This document shows positions 3,688-21,412 of a stretch of 35,935 bases of DNA, in pieces. Made by a program: the position numbers and the translations under genes. Below the pieces are notes generated by a model that had not been told where the DNA came from, made no database searches, and saw only the letters and a list, made by a program, of their open reading frames with translations. The stretch spans positions 1 to 35,935 of the forward strand of contig CALXPY010000067.1 in assembly GCA_944390395.1 (NCBI GenBank), given 5' to 3'. Source of the stretch: an uncultured Clostridia bacterium (GTDB taxonomy: Bacteria > Bacillota > Clostridia > TANB77 > CAG-508). The first letter of the stretch is position 1; each line of letters starts with the position of its first letter.

Positions 3688-3789
3688 ATGAAGTATACAA
3701 AGCCGGTCGTTTTGAACCCTAAGCAGGTACAAGCGGCAAAGTGTGGCGATGGCCCCTGCGGCAGACCTTGTAGCAAGAATAAGGCCTGA
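3688..3789 (+). CDS. Putative Cys-rich RiPP precursor peptide (33 aa)
   Basis: The gene is too short for standard ORF cut-offs but has every sign of a real one. ATG at 3688 follows GGGAGG with good spacing, a consensus promoter lies upstream (3584-3612), and an intrinsic terminator follows (3815-3846). The peptide starts MKYTKPVVLNPKQVQAAK, a Lys-rich leader-like half, and ends with a Cys/Gly/Pro-rich core, CGDGPCGRPC, then a basic tail SKNKA. Cysteines are residues 19, 24 and 28, spaced C-x4-C-x3-C. The next gene encodes a radical SAM protein with an N-terminal RRE-like domain, which binds leader peptides in RiPP pathways. I therefore read it as the substrate, probably given thioether (sactipeptide or ranthipeptide-like) links. 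I do not recognise the exact family, and the core/leader boundary is unknown. Confidence 0.75.
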   Translation: MKYTKPVVLNPKQVQAAKCGDGPCGRPCSKNKA

Positions 3790-3814
3790 CTCAGCGCCTA
3801 TACAATGGGTCTCA

Positions 3815-3846
3815 GGACGCAGAGCGGTTTGCCTGCGTCCTTTTTT
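3815..3846 (+). terminator. Intrinsic terminator between peptide gene and first radical SAM gene
   Basis: GGACGCAG (3815-3822) and CTGCGTCC (3833-3840) form a perfect 8-bp stem with a 10-nt loop, followed by TTTTTT. Partial readthrough here would give much peptide mRNA and little enzyme mRNA, a common arrangement in RiPP operons. Confidence 0.88.
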
Positions 3847-3881: not shown

Positions 3882-5354
3882 ATGTACTACAAAATCAGGA
3901 ACGATGTTTTATTTAGGCAGTACCCTGGATATGGATATATCACAGATAACTCTGAGTTCGGATACCGGCTGTTAAATGACAGTCGTTGCTTTTCTGGGGA
4001 AAAATATGTTTCAGAAAGCGGAGCGGTTATGCTTGCTACGCTGAGTAAGGTTCCGCGGCATATTGACAATATCATTGAGGATTTGATGCGAGTTTTTGTT
4101 GAGGTAGAATATGATACGTTGAAACAGGATGTGGTGGAGTTTTTTCAGTGGCTTGTAAATGAGGGGTATCTGAGCCATGGTGAAACCTTTGATATCTGCA
4201 AAAATCAGGAAGACATCAGTCTATCGAGATGCTTAGATGATGGATTAGCGCAAGCAATCATCAGAACCGAAAACTGCGAAAATGAGTTTATTGGACAAAA
4301 TGATTTCCTCAGAAGTATTCACATTGAGATTGCAAGTGCGTGTAATGAGCGGTGTGTCCATTGCTATATCCCTCATAGATATAAAGATAAGATAATTGAT
4401 TCTGAACTGTTTTATCGAATTTTGGATGAGGGACGGGAGATGAACATTATCCATGTGACTTTGTCAGGTGGAGAACCGCTACTGCACAGGGATTTCTTGC
4501 AGTTTTTGGAAAAGTGCAGAGAACTAGATTTGTCCGTTAATGTGCTGTCAAACCTGACTGCACTCACAGACGAAATAGTTTTAGAGATGAAAAGGAACCC
4601 CCTTCTCTCTGTCCAAACATCACTTTATTCCATGGATCCATCGGTACATGATTCCATCACAAAGCTTAGCGGTAGTTTTGAAAAGACAAAACAAGGACTA
4701 ATGCGTCTGTACTCTGCTGGTATCCCAGTACAAATATCGTGTCCTGTCATGAAACAAAATAAGAATAGCTTTTTGGATGTTATACGATGGGGGCGGGAAC
4801 ACCACATTGCTGTGGCGGTAGAGCCTATGATATTCGCTACATACGACCATTCGGGTAGTAATCTGGCGAACCGTCTATCCTTAGAAGAAGTCGGTGAGGC
4901 TGTAGATAAACAACTTCCAGAAGGATATGCAGATATGATGCGCGAGGCTGCAAAAGAAAAGGAGTTGCTAACGGGTAACAATCCGATTTGTTCAATCTGC
5001 CGTTACAGCTTTTGCGTCTCTGTAGAGGGAGATGTATTTCCTTGTGCTGGATGGCAGACAAATATTATTGGAAATTTAACTCAGCAAACAATCCGAGAAA
5101 TTTGGGAAACATCGGAGAAGATACAGAATCTACGGCTAATCAAAAGGGAGCAATTTCCAAAGTGTGTTACCTGTAGGGACAGAGGGTACTGCACAGTTTG
5201 CATGATGTGCAACTCCAACGAGAATCTCGATGGCGATATCTTCCGGATCAATAGCTATCACTGTAAAGCAGCTGCTATGATTCATAGCAAAGTGGATGCG
5301 TTCTTCCATGAAATTCCAGAGTCTAAAGGTGGGGATACTTTAAACAATGTGTAG
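3882..5354 (+). CDS. RRE-radical SAM-SPASM peptide-modifying enzyme (490 aa)
   Basis: This is probably the main maturase of the upstream 33-aa peptide. Residues 1-100 look like a PqqD-type RiPP recognition element that docks the leader. The radical SAM core starts near residue 145, with the cluster motif C154-x3-C158-x2-C161 and the SAM-binding GGEP at 196-199. A SPASM domain follows, with cysteines at 370, 373, 378, 388, 428, 431, 437, 440, 443 and 461, enough for two auxiliary Fe-S clusters. This architecture is that of sactisynthases such as AlbA and ThnB and of ranthipeptide synthases. ATG at 3882 follows a GAGGGCGG site. It is expressed by readthrough of the terminator at 3815-3846. The type of bond made (thioether or other) cannot be read from the sequence. 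Confidence 0.9.
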   Translation: MYYKIRNDVLFRQYPGYGYITDNSEFGYRLLNDSRCFSGEKYVSESGAVMLATLSKVPRHIDNIIEDLMRVFVEVEYDTLKQDVVEFFQWLVNEGYLSHGETFDICKNQEDISLSRCLDDGLAQAIIRTENCENEFIGQNDFLRSIHIEIASACNERCVHCYIPHRYKDKIIDSELFYRILDEGREMNIIHVTLSGGEPLLHRDFLQFLEKCRELDLSVNVLSNLTALTDEIVLEMKRNPLLSVQTSLYSMDPSVHDSITKLSGSFEKTKQGLMRLYSAGIPVQISCPVMKQNKNSFLDVIRWGREHHIAVAVEPMIFATYDHSGSNLANRLSLEEVGEAVDKQLPEGYADMMREAAKEKELLTGNNPICSICRYSFCVSVEGDVFPCAGWQTNIIGNLTQQTIREIWETSEKIQNLRLIKREQFPKCVTCRDRGYCTVCMMCNSNENLDGDIFRINSYHCKAAAMIHSKVDAFFHEIPESKGGDTLNNV

Positions 5355-5407
5355 TAGTTAGAAGGGTACTTCTCTGAAATCTTTATAATAAGGGAATGTT
5401 ACAGAGT

Positions 5408-7747
5408 ATGGAAAAAATTCTAATCAAAGACGCTCATGAGAACAATTTGAAGCATCTTGATGTAGAAATCCCCCTAAATGCTTTTACCTGTGTAACAGGC
5501 TGCTCTGGGTGTGGAAAATCCTCATTGGTCTTTGATACGATTTATGCAGAGAGCCAGAGAGGGTTCCTAGAGGGAATGACCGGGAACATCTACGGACAAA
5601 AGCTGATGAATAAGCCTAAGGTTGGGTCCATTGAGAACCTCCGTCCGGCACTTAATATCTCGCAAAATTATTATAATGTCAATCCACGTTCTACTATTGG
5701 AACCACAACAGAAATATCTTATTACCTGCGATCCCTATTTGCAATCGTCAACAGCAATCAAACCGTGGATATTTCGGAAAATGCCTTTTCCGCCAATAAC
5801 CCTAAATCTTTTTGCCCCAACTGTTTTGGACTTGGTGTAGAAACAGTGGTCTCAGAAGCTCTTTTAATTCCAGATAGAGAAAAAACTTTAAGAGATGGGG
5901 CCATCCTATTTTTCAAAGGGCCACAAGATGGCAAAGAGCAAAAATATTTGGAGGCGTTTTGTGAACATTATGGAATTAATGTAGACCAAAAAGTTTCCCA
6001 GTTGAGCCAAAGCGAACTACACACGTTACTTTATGCGGACGATCAGATTAGATTTAAACTCTCTTATAAGGAGGGAAAGCGCAGAAAACAACATTATGTT
6101 GTCTTACGGGGAGCTATTCCTGCCATCCAAGAGCGGACTTCGGGCGGAAGTCCGTCTGAACCATCTGTTGTGTACTCTAAGTACATGGAGGAAGTTCCAT
6201 GCCATGTTTGTGGCGGAGCAAAATTGAGGCAGAACATCTTAGAGTACAAAGTCGGTGGGTTGAGCTATGATGAGGTTGAACGCATGGAACTCACTTCTTT
6301 GTATTCATGGCTACAAAGGTTTAATGATAGTTGGGTCACACCAGCAAAAAAGGAGTTGTCTTCCCAACTGGTAGAGGGAATGCTTCGTAAATTGGAAGCA
6401 CTTATCCAGTTGAATGTTGGATATTTATGTCTGAGCAGATCAATCCCCACTCTTTCGGGCGGTGAGCGGCAGCGGATTCGAATTGCCACACAACTCACAT
6501 GTTCCTTGAAGGGTTTAATCTATATCCTTGATGAACCATGCAAGGGTCTGCATTATAGGGATATTACTAGTATCATTCAAGCCACTCAGAACTTAATACA
6601 TCGAGGGAATACGGTAATCGCAATTGAACACAATAAACGATATATTTCCTCTGCTGACTATACGATAGAGTTGGGGCCTGTTGGAGGACCAGAAGGCGGA
6701 TACTTAATTGATAAAAAAGACAAGCAATCTGACTGCTGGGGCAAGATGACTTTTAAATCCTCTTACAGTCTGGAGCAGTGCTTCGAGCTTGAGAATATTA
6801 ACTTTAGAAACATCAAAGGTCAGACCGCTCGTTTCCCTGTCGGTGGTATCACCTGTATTACCGGGGTCTCGGGCTCTGGAAAATCGACATTGGCTACAGT
6901 TGTTGCCAAATGCTTTGCTAGGCGCTCCAACAACTGTTGTGCTTCTTTCCGCGGAGGAAATTCCATTAAACGGGCAATTCAGGTGGATCAGGCTCCTATT
7001 GGCAAAACTCCAAGGTCTACTATTGTTTCTTATTTGGGAATCTTCGATGAAATTCGCACATTGTTTTCAGAAACAGATGCTGCACGCAAAATGAAAATAA
7101 GTGCTTCGATGTTCAGTATGAACATTAAGGGAGGCCGTTGCGAATGTTGTCAAGGAACTGGACTTCAAAAGATTGAACTGAATTATTTGCCAAGTTCCTA
7201 CATCATATGCCCAGAATGTGGTGGAAAGAGATTCAATGATCGAGTTTTGTCTGTGGAATACCATGGTAAAACTATCCAAGAGGTATTGGAAACTCCAATT
7301 TCAGATATCATAGGAATTTTTAAAGGAACAAAAAAGGTTTTCCCTGTTTTGACCAGTATGGTAGAATTGGGCCTAGGGTATCTAAAGTTGGGTCAAATGT
7401 CCATGAATTTGTCTGGCGGAGAAGCACAGCGTATAAAATTAGCTAAGGCCCTAGGTGCTTCTTCCAGTGGGCAGAATCTATATATCCTAGATGAGCCTAC
7501 GTCTGGACTGAATGATGTAGACATTGACAGGTTTGTAAAAATACTATTCTCCCTGCAAGCCAATCAGGAAACCATCATAATTATCGAACACAATATTGAA
7601 TTTATTGCCAAAGTTGCGGATTATATAATAGATTTTGGAGTGTTCGGCGGCGAGGCAGGCGGAAAAATTGTTGCTCAAGGGTCGCCCGAGACAGTGTTTT
7701 CTAATGAGGCGTCTTCATTATATCAATTGGATAGTATGTTGAATTAA
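5408..7747 (+). CDS. Class II UvrA-like ABC ATPase, candidate self-protection factor (779 aa)
   Basis: The protein has the tandem ABC layout of UvrA. Walker A motifs are GCSGCGKSSL (31-40) and GVSGSGKSTL (486-495), signatures are LSGGERQR (349-356) and LSGGEAQR (668-675), and Walker B/D-loops are LDEPCKGLH and LDEPTSGLN. Zinc-binding pairs are C136/C139 with C265/C268, and C578/C581 with C601/C604. It is about 160 residues shorter than housekeeping UvrA (about 940) and resembles UvrA2/DrrC types that lack the UvrB-binding insertion. DrrC-type proteins give resistance to DNA-intercalating drugs in producer strains. Sitting between two radical SAM genes, it probably protects against the product, but an accessory role is possible. 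An alternative ATG at 5396 exists; 5408 is preferred because AGGGA abuts 5396 directly. Confidence 0.88.
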   Translation: MEKILIKDAHENNLKHLDVEIPLNAFTCVTGCSGCGKSSLVFDTIYAESQRGFLEGMTGNIYGQKLMNKPKVGSIENLRPALNISQNYYNVNPRSTIGTTTEISYYLRSLFAIVNSNQTVDISENAFSANNPKSFCPNCFGLGVETVVSEALLIPDREKTLRDGAILFFKGPQDGKEQKYLEAFCEHYGINVDQKVSQLSQSELHTLLYADDQIRFKLSYKEGKRRKQHYVVLRGAIPAIQERTSGGSPSEPSVVYSKYMEEVPCHVCGGAKLRQNILEYKVGGLSYDEVERMELTSLYSWLQRFNDSWVTPAKKELSSQLVEGMLRKLEALIQLNVGYLCLSRSIPTLSGGERQRIRIATQLTCSLKGLIYILDEPCKGLHYRDITSIIQATQNLIHRGNTVIAIEHNKRYISSADYTIELGPVGGPEGGYLIDKKDKQSDCWGKMTFKSSYSLEQCFELENINFRNIKGQTARFPVGGITCITGVSGSGKSTLATVVAKCFARRSNNCCASFRGGNSIKRAIQVDQAPIGKTPRSTIVSYLGIFDEIRTLFSETDAARKMKISASMFSMNIKGGRCECCQGTGLQKIELNYLPSSYIICPECGGKRFNDRVLSVEYHGKTIQEVLETPISDIIGIFKGTKKVFPVLTSMVELGLGYLKLGQMSMNLSGGEAQRIKLAKALGASSSGQNLYILDEPTSGLNDVDIDRFVKILFSLQANQETIIIIEHNIEFIAKVADYIIDFGVFGGEAGGKIVAQGSPETVFSNEASSLYQLDSMLN

Positions 7748-7787: not shown

Positions 7788-8852
7788 ATGGTAGCGGAAA
7801 GTGAAGGGAAAATCAAGCAATGTACAATTGTACTAACAAGGGACTGCAATTTGCGTTGCAATTTTTGTTATGTGAAAAGTGCCGGCTATATGGCAGACGA
7901 CAAGATTAGCTATGAAAATCTCAAACAAATAGTGGATTTTTGTAGTGAATCGAAAGTGAAATTTATATTTTTTACGGGAGGAGAGCCACTTTTATACCCC
8001 CACATCATCGATATTTTGCAGTATATCAAAGGCAAACACCATTCGATGACTACTGCAATCGCTACAAACAGCATTCTGCTGAAAGACCCTGCGTTTTGCA
8101 GAAAATTGATTGATAGTGGGGTGGAGTATCTTGATTTGTCGATGAAAGGAACAAATTCGCAGGAGTGGTGCAAAGCAACAGGCTACGATGGATTCGACCA
8201 GCAGTTGCAGGCCATCCGCAATTTATCTATACTGCCGGTTGAATTTACTTGCTCCATGGTAGTAACTCAGGATAACGTTTTGACTATTTGCGACGCAGTT
8301 CAAATAGCTTGTAATAATGGAGCAAAGCAGTTCTCATTTACTTTTGTCATCGACAACGATGATACAGAAGATAAAAATCGAACATATTTGGAAAAACACA
8401 ACCCCTTTGCCTTAGTTGAGGCGTTTATCTCTCAGATTGATCATTTGAACACCATTACGGAAGATTGGTGGATTGAATATAGCTTTCCCATGTGCATTTA
8501 TACCGAGGAGCAGTTGTCCTTGCTGGAAGGGAAGTTAGCTACGCCTTGCCAAGTCCATATGAAAAATGCTGTAACCTTCAACACAAAGATGGAACTGCTG
8601 CCCTGCGATATGTACATTGATCAGAGAATGGGACAACTTGGTACGGATTTTTCATCATATCACGAATTTGTGGAATTAACAAAGCGCCCTTCCTATCGTT
8701 GTGTAATGGAAACTCTGCGGAAACGACCATCAAGTGAGTGTACGACGTGTAAGCATTTAGAGGCTTGTTATGGTGGATGCCCTGTACTCTGGAAGCACTA
8801 TTCTTTTGAGGCATTGAAAGCTTTTGACCAAGAAGTTAGAGCGACCTATTAG
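7788..8852 (+). CDS. Second radical SAM enzyme of the peptide cassette (354 aa)
   Basis: ATG at 7788 follows AAAGGAG, 40 bp after the UvrA-like gene, so it is in the same operon. The cluster motif C20-x3-C24-x2-C27 is almost N-terminal (DCNLRCNFCY) and GGEP lies at 64-67. There is no RRE-like N-terminal domain. The C-terminal part has a shortened SPASM/twitch-like region, LPCDMY near 275 and CTTCKHLEACYGGCP near 325-340. It would be a second modification enzyme on the same peptide, perhaps relying on the first protein for substrate docking. Its reaction (second cross-link, epimerisation, other) is unknown. Motifs give high confidence for the superfamily, low for the function. Confidence 0.88.
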   Translation: MVAESEGKIKQCTIVLTRDCNLRCNFCYVKSAGYMADDKISYENLKQIVDFCSESKVKFIFFTGGEPLLYPHIIDILQYIKGKHHSMTTAIATNSILLKDPAFCRKLIDSGVEYLDLSMKGTNSQEWCKATGYDGFDQQLQAIRNLSILPVEFTCSMVVTQDNVLTICDAVQIACNNGAKQFSFTFVIDNDDTEDKNRTYLEKHNPFALVEAFISQIDHLNTITEDWWIEYSFPMCIYTEEQLSLLEGKLATPCQVHMKNAVTFNTKMELLPCDMYIDQRMGQLGTDFSSYHEFVELTKRPSYRCVMETLRKRPSSECTTCKHLEACYGGCPVLWKHYSFEALKAFDQEVRATY

Positions 8853-19221: not shown

Positions 19222-20475
19222 TTAGAGATCAAGGCTATTGGGGTCTAACAAAAAATCCATAATCCCCATTACAACGATACCTTCCTCATTACGCCAGAGC
19301 TTGATATTGTCCTTAACAACAATCATTTTTTTGAAAGAGTCACCAATACGCACCAAAGAGCTTTTCTCCTGTTTCATCTTCTCTTCGTCCGGGATGGCAA
19401 ACGCCGATTGGATGTAGTATCGTTTGCTTCCCTTATTGCAGATAAAGTCAACCTCTAAACGCTTGCGAATCGACTTTCCGTTCTCATCTCTTTGTGAGTA
19501 GTCTACTACTCCGACATCTACATTGAAACCACGGACGAGAAGTTCATTATATATGATATTTTCCATGATGTGGTTTTCTTCCTGCTGACGAAAATTAAGC
19601 TGCGCATTACGAAGCCCCACATCAGTGAAATAATATTTGTATGGAGAAGCAATATACTTCTTTCCCTTAATGTCGTATCGTTCCGCCCTGCTGATGAAAA
19701 ACGCATCCAAAAGATAGCCAATATATGCGCTGACAGTTTTATCACTGACAGGAATCCCATTGCTTGCAAAAGTGTTTGCTAACTTTGACGGATTGGTAAG
19801 GGAACCTACAGCAGAAGCAAGAACATTGACTAAAGCCTCCATGACATGATCCCCTCGAAGACGATTCCGCTCCTCGATATCCTTTAGATACAATTCCCGG
19901 CACAGATCAATCAAATATCTTGACTTCAGCTCATCACTATTACGGCTTAAAATCAATGGCAGACCGCCGTAGGTATAATAGTCGTTCCAGGCTTCATACT
20001 TATCGCCTGGATGTGCTGACAAATATTCCGAAAAGGACAGAGGATATACGCGGACTTCATCTCCCCGTCCCCGAAATTCCGTTAAAACATCCGAGGAGAG
20101 AAATTTCGAGTTACTGCCAGTCACATAGATGTCTACATTCTCTCTGCGATTAAGCCCGTTTAATACCGCTTCAAATCCGCTGCACAGCTGGACTTCATCC
20201 AGAAAAATATACCACATATCGTCGTCCGTCAAGCGCTCTTTTATATAAGCGCTCAATCTTTTGCTTTCGCGCAGTTCTTCATACTCCTCGTCATCTAATG
20301 GAATGCGTATGATTCTGGAAGCATCAATGCCCGAAGCCAACAGATATTGATAATACAGCTTGAACAGCAAATAGGATTTTCCGCACCGACGAATTCCGGT
20401 CACTACTTTTATCAAGCCATTTTCCCGCCGCTCAATGAGTCGATTTAGATATATGTCGCGTTTGATCATCTCCAT
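19222..20475 (-). CDS. AAA ATPase with DUF4143-type C-terminus (417 aa)
   Basis: The N-terminal P-loop ATPase has Walker A GIRRCGKS (27-34) and Walker B YIFLDEVQ with D93/E94. It is followed by the sensor-like YVTGSNS and the C-terminal DUF4143-type nuclease-like region (LEVDFICNKG near 345-355). These proteins are widespread in gut bacteria and their function is not established. ATG at 20475 follows AGGAGG with 7-nt spacing. It has its own consensus promoter and terminator, so it is an independent unit inserted between the excisionase and integrase genes, which are normally adjacent. It may be cargo, perhaps a stability or defence gene; that is speculation. Confidence 0.87.
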   Translation of the reverse strand: MEMIKRDIYLNRLIERRENGLIKVVTGIRRCGKSYLLFKLYYQYLLASGIDASRIIRIPLDDEEYEELRESKRLSAYIKERLTDDDMWYIFLDEVQLCSGFEAVLNGLNRRENVDIYVTGSNSKFLSSDVLTEFRGRGDEVRVYPLSFSEYLSAHPGDKYEAWNDYYTYGGLPLILSRNSDELKSRYLIDLCRELYLKDIEERNRLRGDHVMEALVNVLASAVGSLTNPSKLANTFASNGIPVSDKTVSAYIGYLLDAFFISRAERYDIKGKKYIASPYKYYFTDVGLRNAQLNFRQQEENHIMENIIYNELLVRGFNVDVGVVDYSQRDENGKSIRKRLEVDFICNKGSKRYYIQSAFAIPDEEKMKQEKSSLVRIGDSFKKMIVVKDNIKLWRNEEGIVVMGIMDFLLDPNSLDL

Positions 20476-20535
20476 GTCTCGTCCTCCTATTCGAATTTTT
20501 GCATATTGCTGCACTTTTTCGTAACTTGCAACACC

Positions 20536-20564
20536 AGTATACACCGTCCACATAGCAATGTCAA
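20536..20564 (-). promoter_or_regulatory. Consensus promoter of the AAA ATPase gene
   Basis: On the minus strand TTGACA (20564-20559) and TATACT (20541-20536) are separated by exactly 17 bp. It lies about 60 bp before the ATPase start codon. Confidence 0.8.
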
Positions 20565-20644
20565 CCTCATAGCGATAGTATATTCCGAAAGTTTACAAAA
20601 ATATGCAATTATTCGTAGCAAGAGTAAGTTCATTTCTATAACCA

Positions 20645-20872
20645 TCACTTCTTGTGTTGTATATGCCGGTAAGTTTCCATTTTCTCTATTGGCTTCGCTC
20701 TGTGCGTACTTTTTGCGATATACTCTTGAAGGCCGGTGTGGGTAAAATAGACGCAGCCATTAGGCACATATTGAATATAGGATATTAAACCACAATTCCT
20801 GGCTTCATCCAAAGTGGCCAAACTGATTCCTAATATTTTGGCCGCCTCTTTACGGGTAATCAGTTTTTCCAT
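20645..20872 (-). CDS. xis: Excisionase-like DNA-binding protein (75 aa)
   Basis: The protein MEKLITRKEAAKILGISLATLDEARNCG has the winged-helix/MerR-type helix-turn-helix of excisionases, with a short wing (YVPNGCVYFTHTGLQEYIAKS) and a basic tail. It would bend attachment-site DNA and steer the integrase toward excision. ATG at 20872 follows AAGGTGAGG with 7-nt spacing; the in-frame TTG at 20878 is less likely. It starts 10 bp after the end of the MazF-like gene, so they are co-transcribed. In Tn916-type elements xis directly precedes int; here the ATPase gene separates them. Confidence 0.85.
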   Translation of the reverse strand: MEKLITRKEAAKILGISLATLDEARNCGLISYIQYVPNGCVYFTHTGLQEYIAKSTHRAKPIEKMETYRHIQHKK

Positions 20873-20881
20873 ATTCAATCC

Positions 20882-21412
20882 TCACCTTCTCTCTGTTCTT
20901 TTGACAACTTCATAGTCAAAGCCAGGGCGCTGGCCGCAATAGGTGCAGATGTCCCGTTCCTGCTGCGCAGGGTTTACCCGTTTCAAATAATAAGAGCCTG
21001 TACCATAGAAATTGTTGGCACAGGCCGGGCAAAGGCACATGATTAAATTTTCGGGAACCTCCTCGATCAGCCCTACGCTGACTGCCAGGGCATGGTTGAT
21101 TCTGCGGATATGCTTTTCTTCCAGCCTGCCGATGTACGTTTCCAACCGCTTCTTATCAATGGTGCGAAGCTGCTCTAAAAGAACAAGAGAAGGCAGCTCT
21201 AGGCCGTTCTCTGCTTTTAACAGATAGTGGGTAGGCAGCTTGGCCTTTGCGTCCACCTTGCTGGAAATAGCCGCTACAATGACGGTGGGGCTATATTTGT
21301 TCCCTGTATTGTTCTGGAGAATGAGGACAGGGCGGCGTCCTTCCTGTTCGGAGCCGATTCCCCGGCCCAGATCGGCATAGTACATTTCGCCGCGCAAGTA
21401 CGTTTTGTTCAT
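20882..21412 (-). CDS. PemK/MazF-family protein with C-terminal zinc ribbon (176 aa)
   Basis: Residues 5-118 form the PemK/MazF fold (RGEMYYADLGRGIGSEQEGRRPVLILQN, with the later TIDKKRL and VSVGL strands). MazF proteins are mRNA-cleaving toxins. Residues 125-176 add a segment with C128/C131 and C156/C159, a zinc-ribbon pattern absent from classical MazF. ATG at 21412 follows GGGAGG. No antitoxin gene is visible next to it: upstream lies about 570 bp without a convincing gene, downstream is the excisionase. It may therefore be a regulator of ICE functions rather than a plain toxin, or its antitoxin is elsewhere. Confidence 0.85.
   Translation of the reverse strand: MNKTYLRGEMYYADLGRGIGSEQEGRRPVLILQNNTGNKYSPTVIVAAISSKVDAKAKLPTHYLLKAENGLELPSLVLLEQLRTIDKKRLETYIGRLEEKHIRRINHALAVSVGLIEEVPENLIMCLCPACANNFYGTGSYYLKRVNPAQQERDICTYCGQRPGFDYEVVKRTERR

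What the first reader, a model, noticed from the sequence alone, without database searches (positions are those of the whole stretch)
7788..8852. Two different radical SAM enzymes for one tiny peptide
Seen: the first enzyme has an RRE-like domain and a full SPASM domain; the second has none of the former and a shortened version of the latter, with its cluster Cys motif near the N-terminus. A 33-aa substrate with three Cys offers few sites, so the second enzyme may do another chemistry (epimerisation, C-C or ether link).
Basis: inference. Interest (0 to 1): 0.6.

Follow-up and report, generated by a model that had tools for sequence, protein, structure and literature searches.

The report
Mobile four-gene radical-peptide cassette with UvrA
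A short peptide, two different radical enzymes and a DNA-repair-like ATPase form one compact gene set that has spread as a unit between distant gut and rumen bacteria; it probably makes a twice-modified small peptide that acts on DNA and against which the ATPase protects its maker.

Summary
7788-8852 encodes a 354-aa radical SAM enzyme (rSAM2) with CX3CX2C at residues 20-27, no RRE, and a SPASM-like C-terminus missing the last canonical cysteine. It is not a stray gene. In 19 independent loci (5 isolates, the rest mostly MAGs; Bacillota, Synergistota, Pseudomonadota, Actinomycetota) the same order recurs: 32-33-aa peptide, RRE-SPASM enzyme (rSAM1), UvrA-like ATPase, rSAM2. All 19 keep rSAM2; 17 keep an intact UvrA-like gene. 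Conservation ends at the cassette edges, and no exporter or peptidase is shared. On the rSAM1 tree rSAM2 plus UvrA appear once (100/100). Sister lineages have the peptide and rSAM1 without them, and already carry P[CS]GRP; the residues unique to cassette peptides are the glycines of C-G-x-G. rSAM2 therefore almost certainly works on this peptide and most likely adds a second, clade-specific change, perhaps at C-G-x-G. Its chemistry cannot be read from sequence. A rival is a TrnC/TrnD-like complex doing one reaction. I found no description of this cassette. New variant of a known kind.

The parts
3688..3789 (+). precursor peptide gene (33 aa; YxKP leader, core AKCGDGPCGRPC)
   Evidence: SD sequence upstream; 18 aligned homologues, invariant Y3 K5 P6 A17 C19 G20 G22 G25 R26 P27; core pattern found in only 2 of 391 class genomes, both with the cassette
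3800..3846 (+). hairpin followed by a T-run between peptide and rSAM1 (probable leaky terminator)
   Evidence: present after the peptide in 15 of 18 cassettes, stem -9 to -23 kcal/mol, with differing but matching arms
3882..5354 (+). rSAM1: RRE + radical SAM + full SPASM peptide maturase (490 aa)
   Evidence: Pfam PqqD, Radical_SAM, SPASM over cut-off; SPASM Cys kept in 14/14 distant and 17-18/18 cassette homologues
5396..7747 (+). [quoted passage not shown]
   Evidence: alignment to B. stearothermophilus UvrA skips about residues 136-280; Walker and signature motifs and CxxC pairs invariant in 17 homologues; Foldseek matches UvrA, UvrA2 and Ecm16
7788..8852 (+). rSAM2: RRE-less radical SAM enzyme with SPASM-like C-terminus (6 of 7 canonical Cys); the feature of the finding
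   Evidence: model pLDDT 84.7, Foldseek BlsE, anSMEcpe, SuiB, SkfB, ChlB

Best explanation
The region is a self-contained, horizontally moving RiPP cassette of four genes. Steps marked I are inferred. A leaky terminator lets the 33-aa precursor be made in excess (I). The RRE of rSAM1 binds the Y-x-K-P leader (I, from invariance of that motif and of the RRE enzyme) and rSAM1 makes the ancestral modification around the first Cys and P-[CS]-G-R-P (I). rSAM2, which has no RRE, then acts on the same precursor, probably presented by or bound to rSAM1, and adds a second modification found only in this clade; the segment C-G-x-G is the best candidate site (I). The UvrA-like ATPase, acquired together with rSAM2, protects the producer from a DNA-acting product in the manner of Ecm16 (I). 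What is shown: the gene set, its strict synteny, its single origin on the rSAM1 tree, its discrete borders, the residue conservation and the domain architectures.
For: Same gene order in 19 loci with rSAM2 at 44-68% identity. Distances of rSAM1, rSAM2 and UvrA correlate, r 0.70-0.83, p 0.0005. The cassette clade is a single origin, 100/100. DNA similarity to other loci is confined to the cassette apart from one primase stretch in L031, and its GC of 41-42% contrasts with 53-57% in most of the ICE genes around it; no neighbour genes are widely shared except mobile-element ones. Peptide invariants C19 G20 G22 G25 R26 P27; sister lineages L043/L056 keep P[CS]GRP but lack CGxG, rSAM2 and the cassette UvrA. 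The UvrA-like protein has Ecm16/UvrA2 architecture (PMC10192343), while the genome carries a separate full-length UvrA. Distant rSAM2 relatives flank other Cys-rich peptides.
Against: No activity, mass or resistance data exist. Ecm16 is not the closest UvrA (PDB phmmer 341 bits against 564 for B. stearothermophilus UvrA), so immunity is inferred from architecture and position. No exporter or peptidase belongs to the cassette, unusual for an antibiotic. L042 keeps rSAM2 without UvrA, although its peptide is also truncated after GRPR. The CGxG site assignment rests on two sister peptides only. Foldseek's best hit for rSAM2 is BlsE, a small-molecule enzyme, though at 18% identity and 6 A rmsd.
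Confidence: 0.45

Rival explanations
1. One-reaction complex: rSAM1 and rSAM2 form a TrnC/TrnD-like heterodimer that makes a single kind of thioether; rSAM2 is mainly a structural or leader-holding partner and does no separate chemistry.
For: In thuricin CD, TrnD has a truncated SPASM and non-canonical RRE, binds TrnC tightly, and its rSAM activity is dispensable (PMC12093266). rSAM2 has no RRE and an incomplete SPASM.
Against: rSAM2 keeps CX3CX2C and seven further C-terminal Cys invariant in 19/19, unexpected for a dispensable catalytic site; sister rSAM1 enzymes manage without a partner.
Confidence: 0.2
2. Intracellular peptide-UvrA machine: the modified peptide is never exported but works inside the cell with the UvrA-like ATPase on DNA, as a mobile conflict or anti-phage module.
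For: No exporter or peptidase is shared by 19 cassettes. Cassettes sit in mobile elements and some beside defence genes (BREX and PglZ at L020; RM, AbiU and Csx1 hits among other neighbours). rSAM2 and UvrA were gained together.
Against: Many other cassettes sit beside ordinary genes; no enrichment test against random loci was made. PADLOC has no model for it (best matches pVip and mad3 are general superfamily hits).
Confidence: 0.15
3. rSAM2 acts as an anSME-like dehydrogenase on the second Cys/Ser, giving an aldehyde residue.
For: Position 24 is only Cys or Ser in all cassettes; anSMEcpe structures are among the best structural matches and the anSME profile aligns over almost the whole length (62.7 bits).
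Against: 62.7 bits is far below the cut-off of 349; sister lineages without rSAM2 also keep P[CS]GRP, so the site is not specific to rSAM2.
Confidence: 0.08
4. rSAM2 does not act on the peptide but on a separate small metabolite.
For: Best Foldseek match is BlsE; MoaA is the top NCBIfam profile (76 bits).
Against: All curated cut-offs missed; CX2CX5CX3C is the SPASM signature; strict 19/19 linkage to a cassette of precursor and RRE enzyme with no other metabolic gene; no stand-alone close homologue in about 680 genomes.
Confidence: 0.07

Closest known systems
Ruminococcin C and thuricin CD (sactipeptides with two radical SAM enzymes)
   Same: Two rSAM enzymes encoded with small Cys-containing precursors in gut or soil Bacillota
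   Different: RumMC1/RumMC2 are highly homologous to each other and both carry RRE and SPASM (PMC8188230); TrnC/TrnD work on two precursors as a complex (PMC12093266). Here the two enzymes are unlike, one without RRE, with one precursor, and a UvrA-like gene lies between them
Ecm16, DrrC and other UvrA-like self-resistance proteins
   Same: UvrA-like ATPase inside a biosynthetic cassette; no UvrB-binding domain; insertion domain and ATPase motifs kept (PMC10192343)
   Different: Known cases listed protect actinomycete makers of non-ribosomal or polyketide DNA ligands; this one accompanies a RiPP, mostly in anaerobic Bacillota, and is not closest to Ecm16 in sequence. A genome-mining paper lists RiPPs among uvrA-neighbour clusters but did not study them (PMC10413001)
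anSME / PapB / SkfB group of SPASM peptide-modifying enzymes
   Same: Radical SAM plus CX2CX5CX3C C-terminus; fold matches; PapB profile aligns end to end
   Different: All curated cut-offs missed by far; last SPASM Cys absent; substrate motif unrelated
YxKP-leader RRE-SPASM peptides without rSAM2 (L043-L061)
   Same: Same rSAM1 family (26-45% identity), same Y-x-K-P leader and first Cys
   Different: No UvrA-like gene or rSAM2; in several an amidohydrolase-like protein follows rSAM1 instead; cores differ except P[CS]GRP in L043 and L056

Membership tests
SPASM-domain radical SAM peptide maturase (rSAM2) | CX3CX2C radical SAM motif | tested here: met
   C20/C24/C27 in 19/19; PF04055 77 bits
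SPASM-domain radical SAM peptide maturase (rSAM2) | complete seven-Cys SPASM motif | tested here: not met
   six of seven canonical positions (C254, C273, C318, C321, C327, C331) plus C236 invariant; last Cys absent; no PF13186 hit
SPASM-domain radical SAM peptide maturase (rSAM2) | linked precursor peptide | tested here: met
   peptide upstream in 19/19 cassettes, one of them frameshifted
MoaA (GTP 3',8-cyclase) | NCBIfam equivalog cut-off | tested here: not met
   76 bits against 231-325
PapB ranthipeptide maturase | NCBIfam cut-off 340 bits | tested here: not met
   74 bits
Anaerobic sulfatase maturase (anSME) | NCBIfam cut-off 349 bits | tested here: not met
   62.7 bits
Sactipeptide / ranthipeptide | Cys thioether to alpha, beta or gamma carbon in the product | not testable with these tools
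   needs tandem MS
Class II UvrA self-resistance protein (Ecm16/DrrC type) | UvrA fold without UvrB-binding domain and zinc module 1 | tested here: met
   definition from PMC10192343
Class II UvrA self-resistance protein (Ecm16/DrrC type) | both ATPase sites intact | tested here: met
   Walker A and signature motifs conserved in 17 homologues
Class II UvrA self-resistance protein (Ecm16/DrrC type) | confers resistance to the cluster's own product | not testable with these tools
   experiment needed
Class II UvrA self-resistance protein (Ecm16/DrrC type) | closest sequence relatives are Ecm16/DrrC | tested here: not met
   Ecm16 is the weakest of 11 PDB matches (341 bits; UvrA 564)
TrnC/TrnD-type rSAM heterodimer | stable complex and joint reaction | not testable with these tools
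   only the truncated SPASM and missing RRE are comparable
AT-hook DNA-binding motif | R-G-R-P core | tested here: not met
   core is P-[CS]-G-R-P; only G-R-P is shared

The most novel reading that the evidence does not exclude
The cassette makes a twice radical-modified ribosomal peptide that acts on DNA, with a UvrA-class ATPase as its antidote or partner and no exporter: a mobile, toxin-antidote-like DNA-targeting RiPP system spread across several phyla.
Probability: 0.3. Interest if true: 0.85.

Novelty: new variant of a known kind. Interest (0 to 1): 0.6.

Why it matters
UvrA-class self-resistance is documented for non-ribosomal and polyketide DNA ligands; a conserved RiPP cassette with such a gene would point to gene-encoded peptides that attack or bind DNA, and gives a four-gene set small enough to rebuild and test. 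Sister lineages with peptide and rSAM1 alone provide natural controls for what rSAM2 adds.

Tried and rejected
A genome-contig scan with rSAM2 alone found nothing, because its exact 8-mer patterns were too strict; the rSAM1 pair alignment then worked. Plasmid, phage and viral collections gave only distant rSAM hits; two viral matches to the peptide pattern are not precursors. I first thought P[CS]GRP was specific to rSAM2-containing clusters; L043 (MSYSKPAVLAKSSAYKAECRPNSKPSGRPC...) and L056 show it is older, so I moved the suspected rSAM2 site to CGxG and lowered the AT-hook idea. NCBIfam has no model for the peptides. Literature searches for UvrA with radical SAM peptides found nothing relevant.

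Full report
Observation. The 354-aa ORF at 7788-8852 is present as described. It is a radical SAM protein without an RRE, with CX3CX2C at residues 20-27. The peptide is 33 aa with three Cys, and the upstream enzyme has RRE, radical SAM and SPASM domains over their cut-offs. Between the two enzymes lies a gene the finding does not mention: a 783-aa UvrA-like ATPase (5396-7744).

Is the pairing real? In a class-wide sample of 391 genomes only one other genome (G547) had a close rSAM2 (56%) and rSAM1 (61%), side by side in the same four-gene order. An alignment of the two rSAM1 proteins recovered 36 loci from 84,980 species genomes. The scan needs an exact 7-residue match, so this is not a census. 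Eighteen of these loci belong with the window; L034 is the G547 contig again, so there are 19 distinct cassettes including the window. Their order is peptide, rSAM1, UvrA, rSAM2. rSAM2 is present in all 19. The UvrA-like gene is intact in 17, interrupted in L048 (Eubacterium plexicaudatum, where rSAM1 is also split) and reduced to a 66-residue remnant in L042. One peptide gene (L039) is frameshifted. Hosts include the isolates Lachnoanaerobaculum saburreum, Clostridium magnum, E. plexicaudatum, Blautia sp. An249 and bacterium 1xD42-87, and MAGs named Synergistaceae, Succinivibrionaceae, Selenomonadaceae and Atopobiaceae. MAG names may be wrong for mobile contigs.

The unit. Distance matrices of the three proteins correlate (r 0.70-0.83). 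Nucleotide similarity to other loci is confined to the cassette (one primase stretch in L031 excepted), and the cassette is 41-42% GC inside an integrative element whose relaxase, primase and recombinase are 55-57% GC. No neighbouring gene is widely shared beyond relaxases, integrases and similar mobile genes; no exporter or peptidase travels with it. Close stand-alone relatives of rSAM2 (about 680 genomes), of the UvrA-like protein (381 genomes) or of the peptide core (391 genomes) were not found.

rSAM2. Nineteen orthologues keep C12, C20, C24, C27, C52, C155, C236, C254, C273, C318, C321, C327 and C331. C318-X2-C321-X5-C327-X3-C331 is the SPASM signature; the last SPASM Cys is absent. An AlphaFold model (pLDDT 84.7, low around the cluster loop) matches BlsE, anSMEcpe, SuiB, SkfB, ChlB and EpeE without singling out one chemistry. 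NCBIfam cut-offs are all missed. Of five relatives at 23-26% identity in other genomes, three (L064, L066, L067) lie beside Cys-rich small ORFs sharing an APIA-type motif, which favours peptide substrates.

The peptide. In 18 aligned precursors Y3, K5, P6, A17, C19, G20, G22, G25, R26 and P27 are invariant. Cys2 becomes Ser in L041 (and in the broken L039), and Cys3 is lost in L035 and L042, so neither is indispensable. Across the wider rSAM1 family the leader motif Y-x-K-P and the first Cys persist. A hairpin with a T-run follows the peptide in 15 of 18 cassettes, as expected for a precursor made in excess.

What rSAM2 adds. On the rSAM1 tree the cassette is one clade with 100/100 support; L043 (Pectobacterium) and L056 (Muribaculaceae) are its nearest sisters, the latter on a long branch. 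They lack rSAM2 and a cassette-type UvrA yet have P-[CS]-G-R-P in their peptides. What they lack is C-G-x-G. Hence rSAM1 most likely makes the old modification, and rSAM2 a newer one, with C-G-x-G the best guess for the site. This is inference from few sequences. The alternative that rSAM1 and rSAM2 act as one complex has a direct precedent in thuricin CD (PMC12093266).

The UvrA-like protein. It skips the UvrB-binding domain and first zinc module of UvrA, keeps both ATPase sites, the CxxC pairs and an insertion domain (PF17755), and matches UvrA, UvrA2 and Ecm16 structures. The genome has its own UvrA elsewhere. Ecm16 has the same architecture and protects without UvrB (PMC10192343). By analogy the product would act on DNA. 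In L042, where UvrA is lost, the peptide is also truncated after GRPR, compatible with relaxed need for protection, but this is a single case. An intracellular, non-exported role (conflict or anti-phage) is not excluded: some cassettes lie near defence genes, but no enrichment was tested.

Verdict. My estimates: probability that rSAM2 acts on this peptide about 0.85-0.9; that it does a chemistry separate from rSAM1 about 0.65; that the UvrA-like gene is self-protection about 0.5. I found no description of this cassette in the held literature, which lacks most subscription journals.

Noticed in passing
window 3800-3846 and the same place in other cassettes: A hairpin with T-run after the peptide has differing but matching arms in 15 loci (GGACGCAG/CTGCGTCC, GGACACAG/CTGTGTCC and so on), so it is conserved in structure rather than sequence.
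   Followed up: partly
L045, L046, L049, L050, L052, L053, L057: rSAM1 relatives, most with Y-x-K-P peptides (AAGC or FSAGC cores), are followed by an amidohydrolase-like protein (HVHIG motif) instead of UvrA and rSAM2: a wider, apparently unnamed family of leader-sharing RiPPs.
   Followed up: partly
L064 5758-5910 (-), L066 about 5980-6280 (+), L067 2498-2743 (-): Distant rSAM2 relatives sit next to small Cys-rich ORFs sharing an APIA-x-G motif; possibly another uncharacterised precursor family.
   Followed up: partly
L020 11283-17402 (-) and 2543-3451 (-): The G547 cassette lies beside BREX-type genes (BrxH-like helicase, PglZ) and a SIR2-like protein.
   Followed up: partly
L048 7983-14572: In Eubacterium plexicaudatum the cassette is decayed: rSAM1 split, UvrA interrupted by opposite-strand ORFs, while peptide and rSAM2 stay open.
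   Followed up: partly
L056 2-9407: A Muribaculaceae cluster with an rSAM1 relative, a peptide containing PCGRPSC, another SPASM-like enzyme, a receptor-like outer-membrane protein and an ABC exporter.
   Followed up: no
window 19222-21412: AAA ATPase matching PADLOC candidate PDC-S01 (407 bits) near a MazF/PemK-like toxin ORF, in the same integrative element.
   Followed up: no
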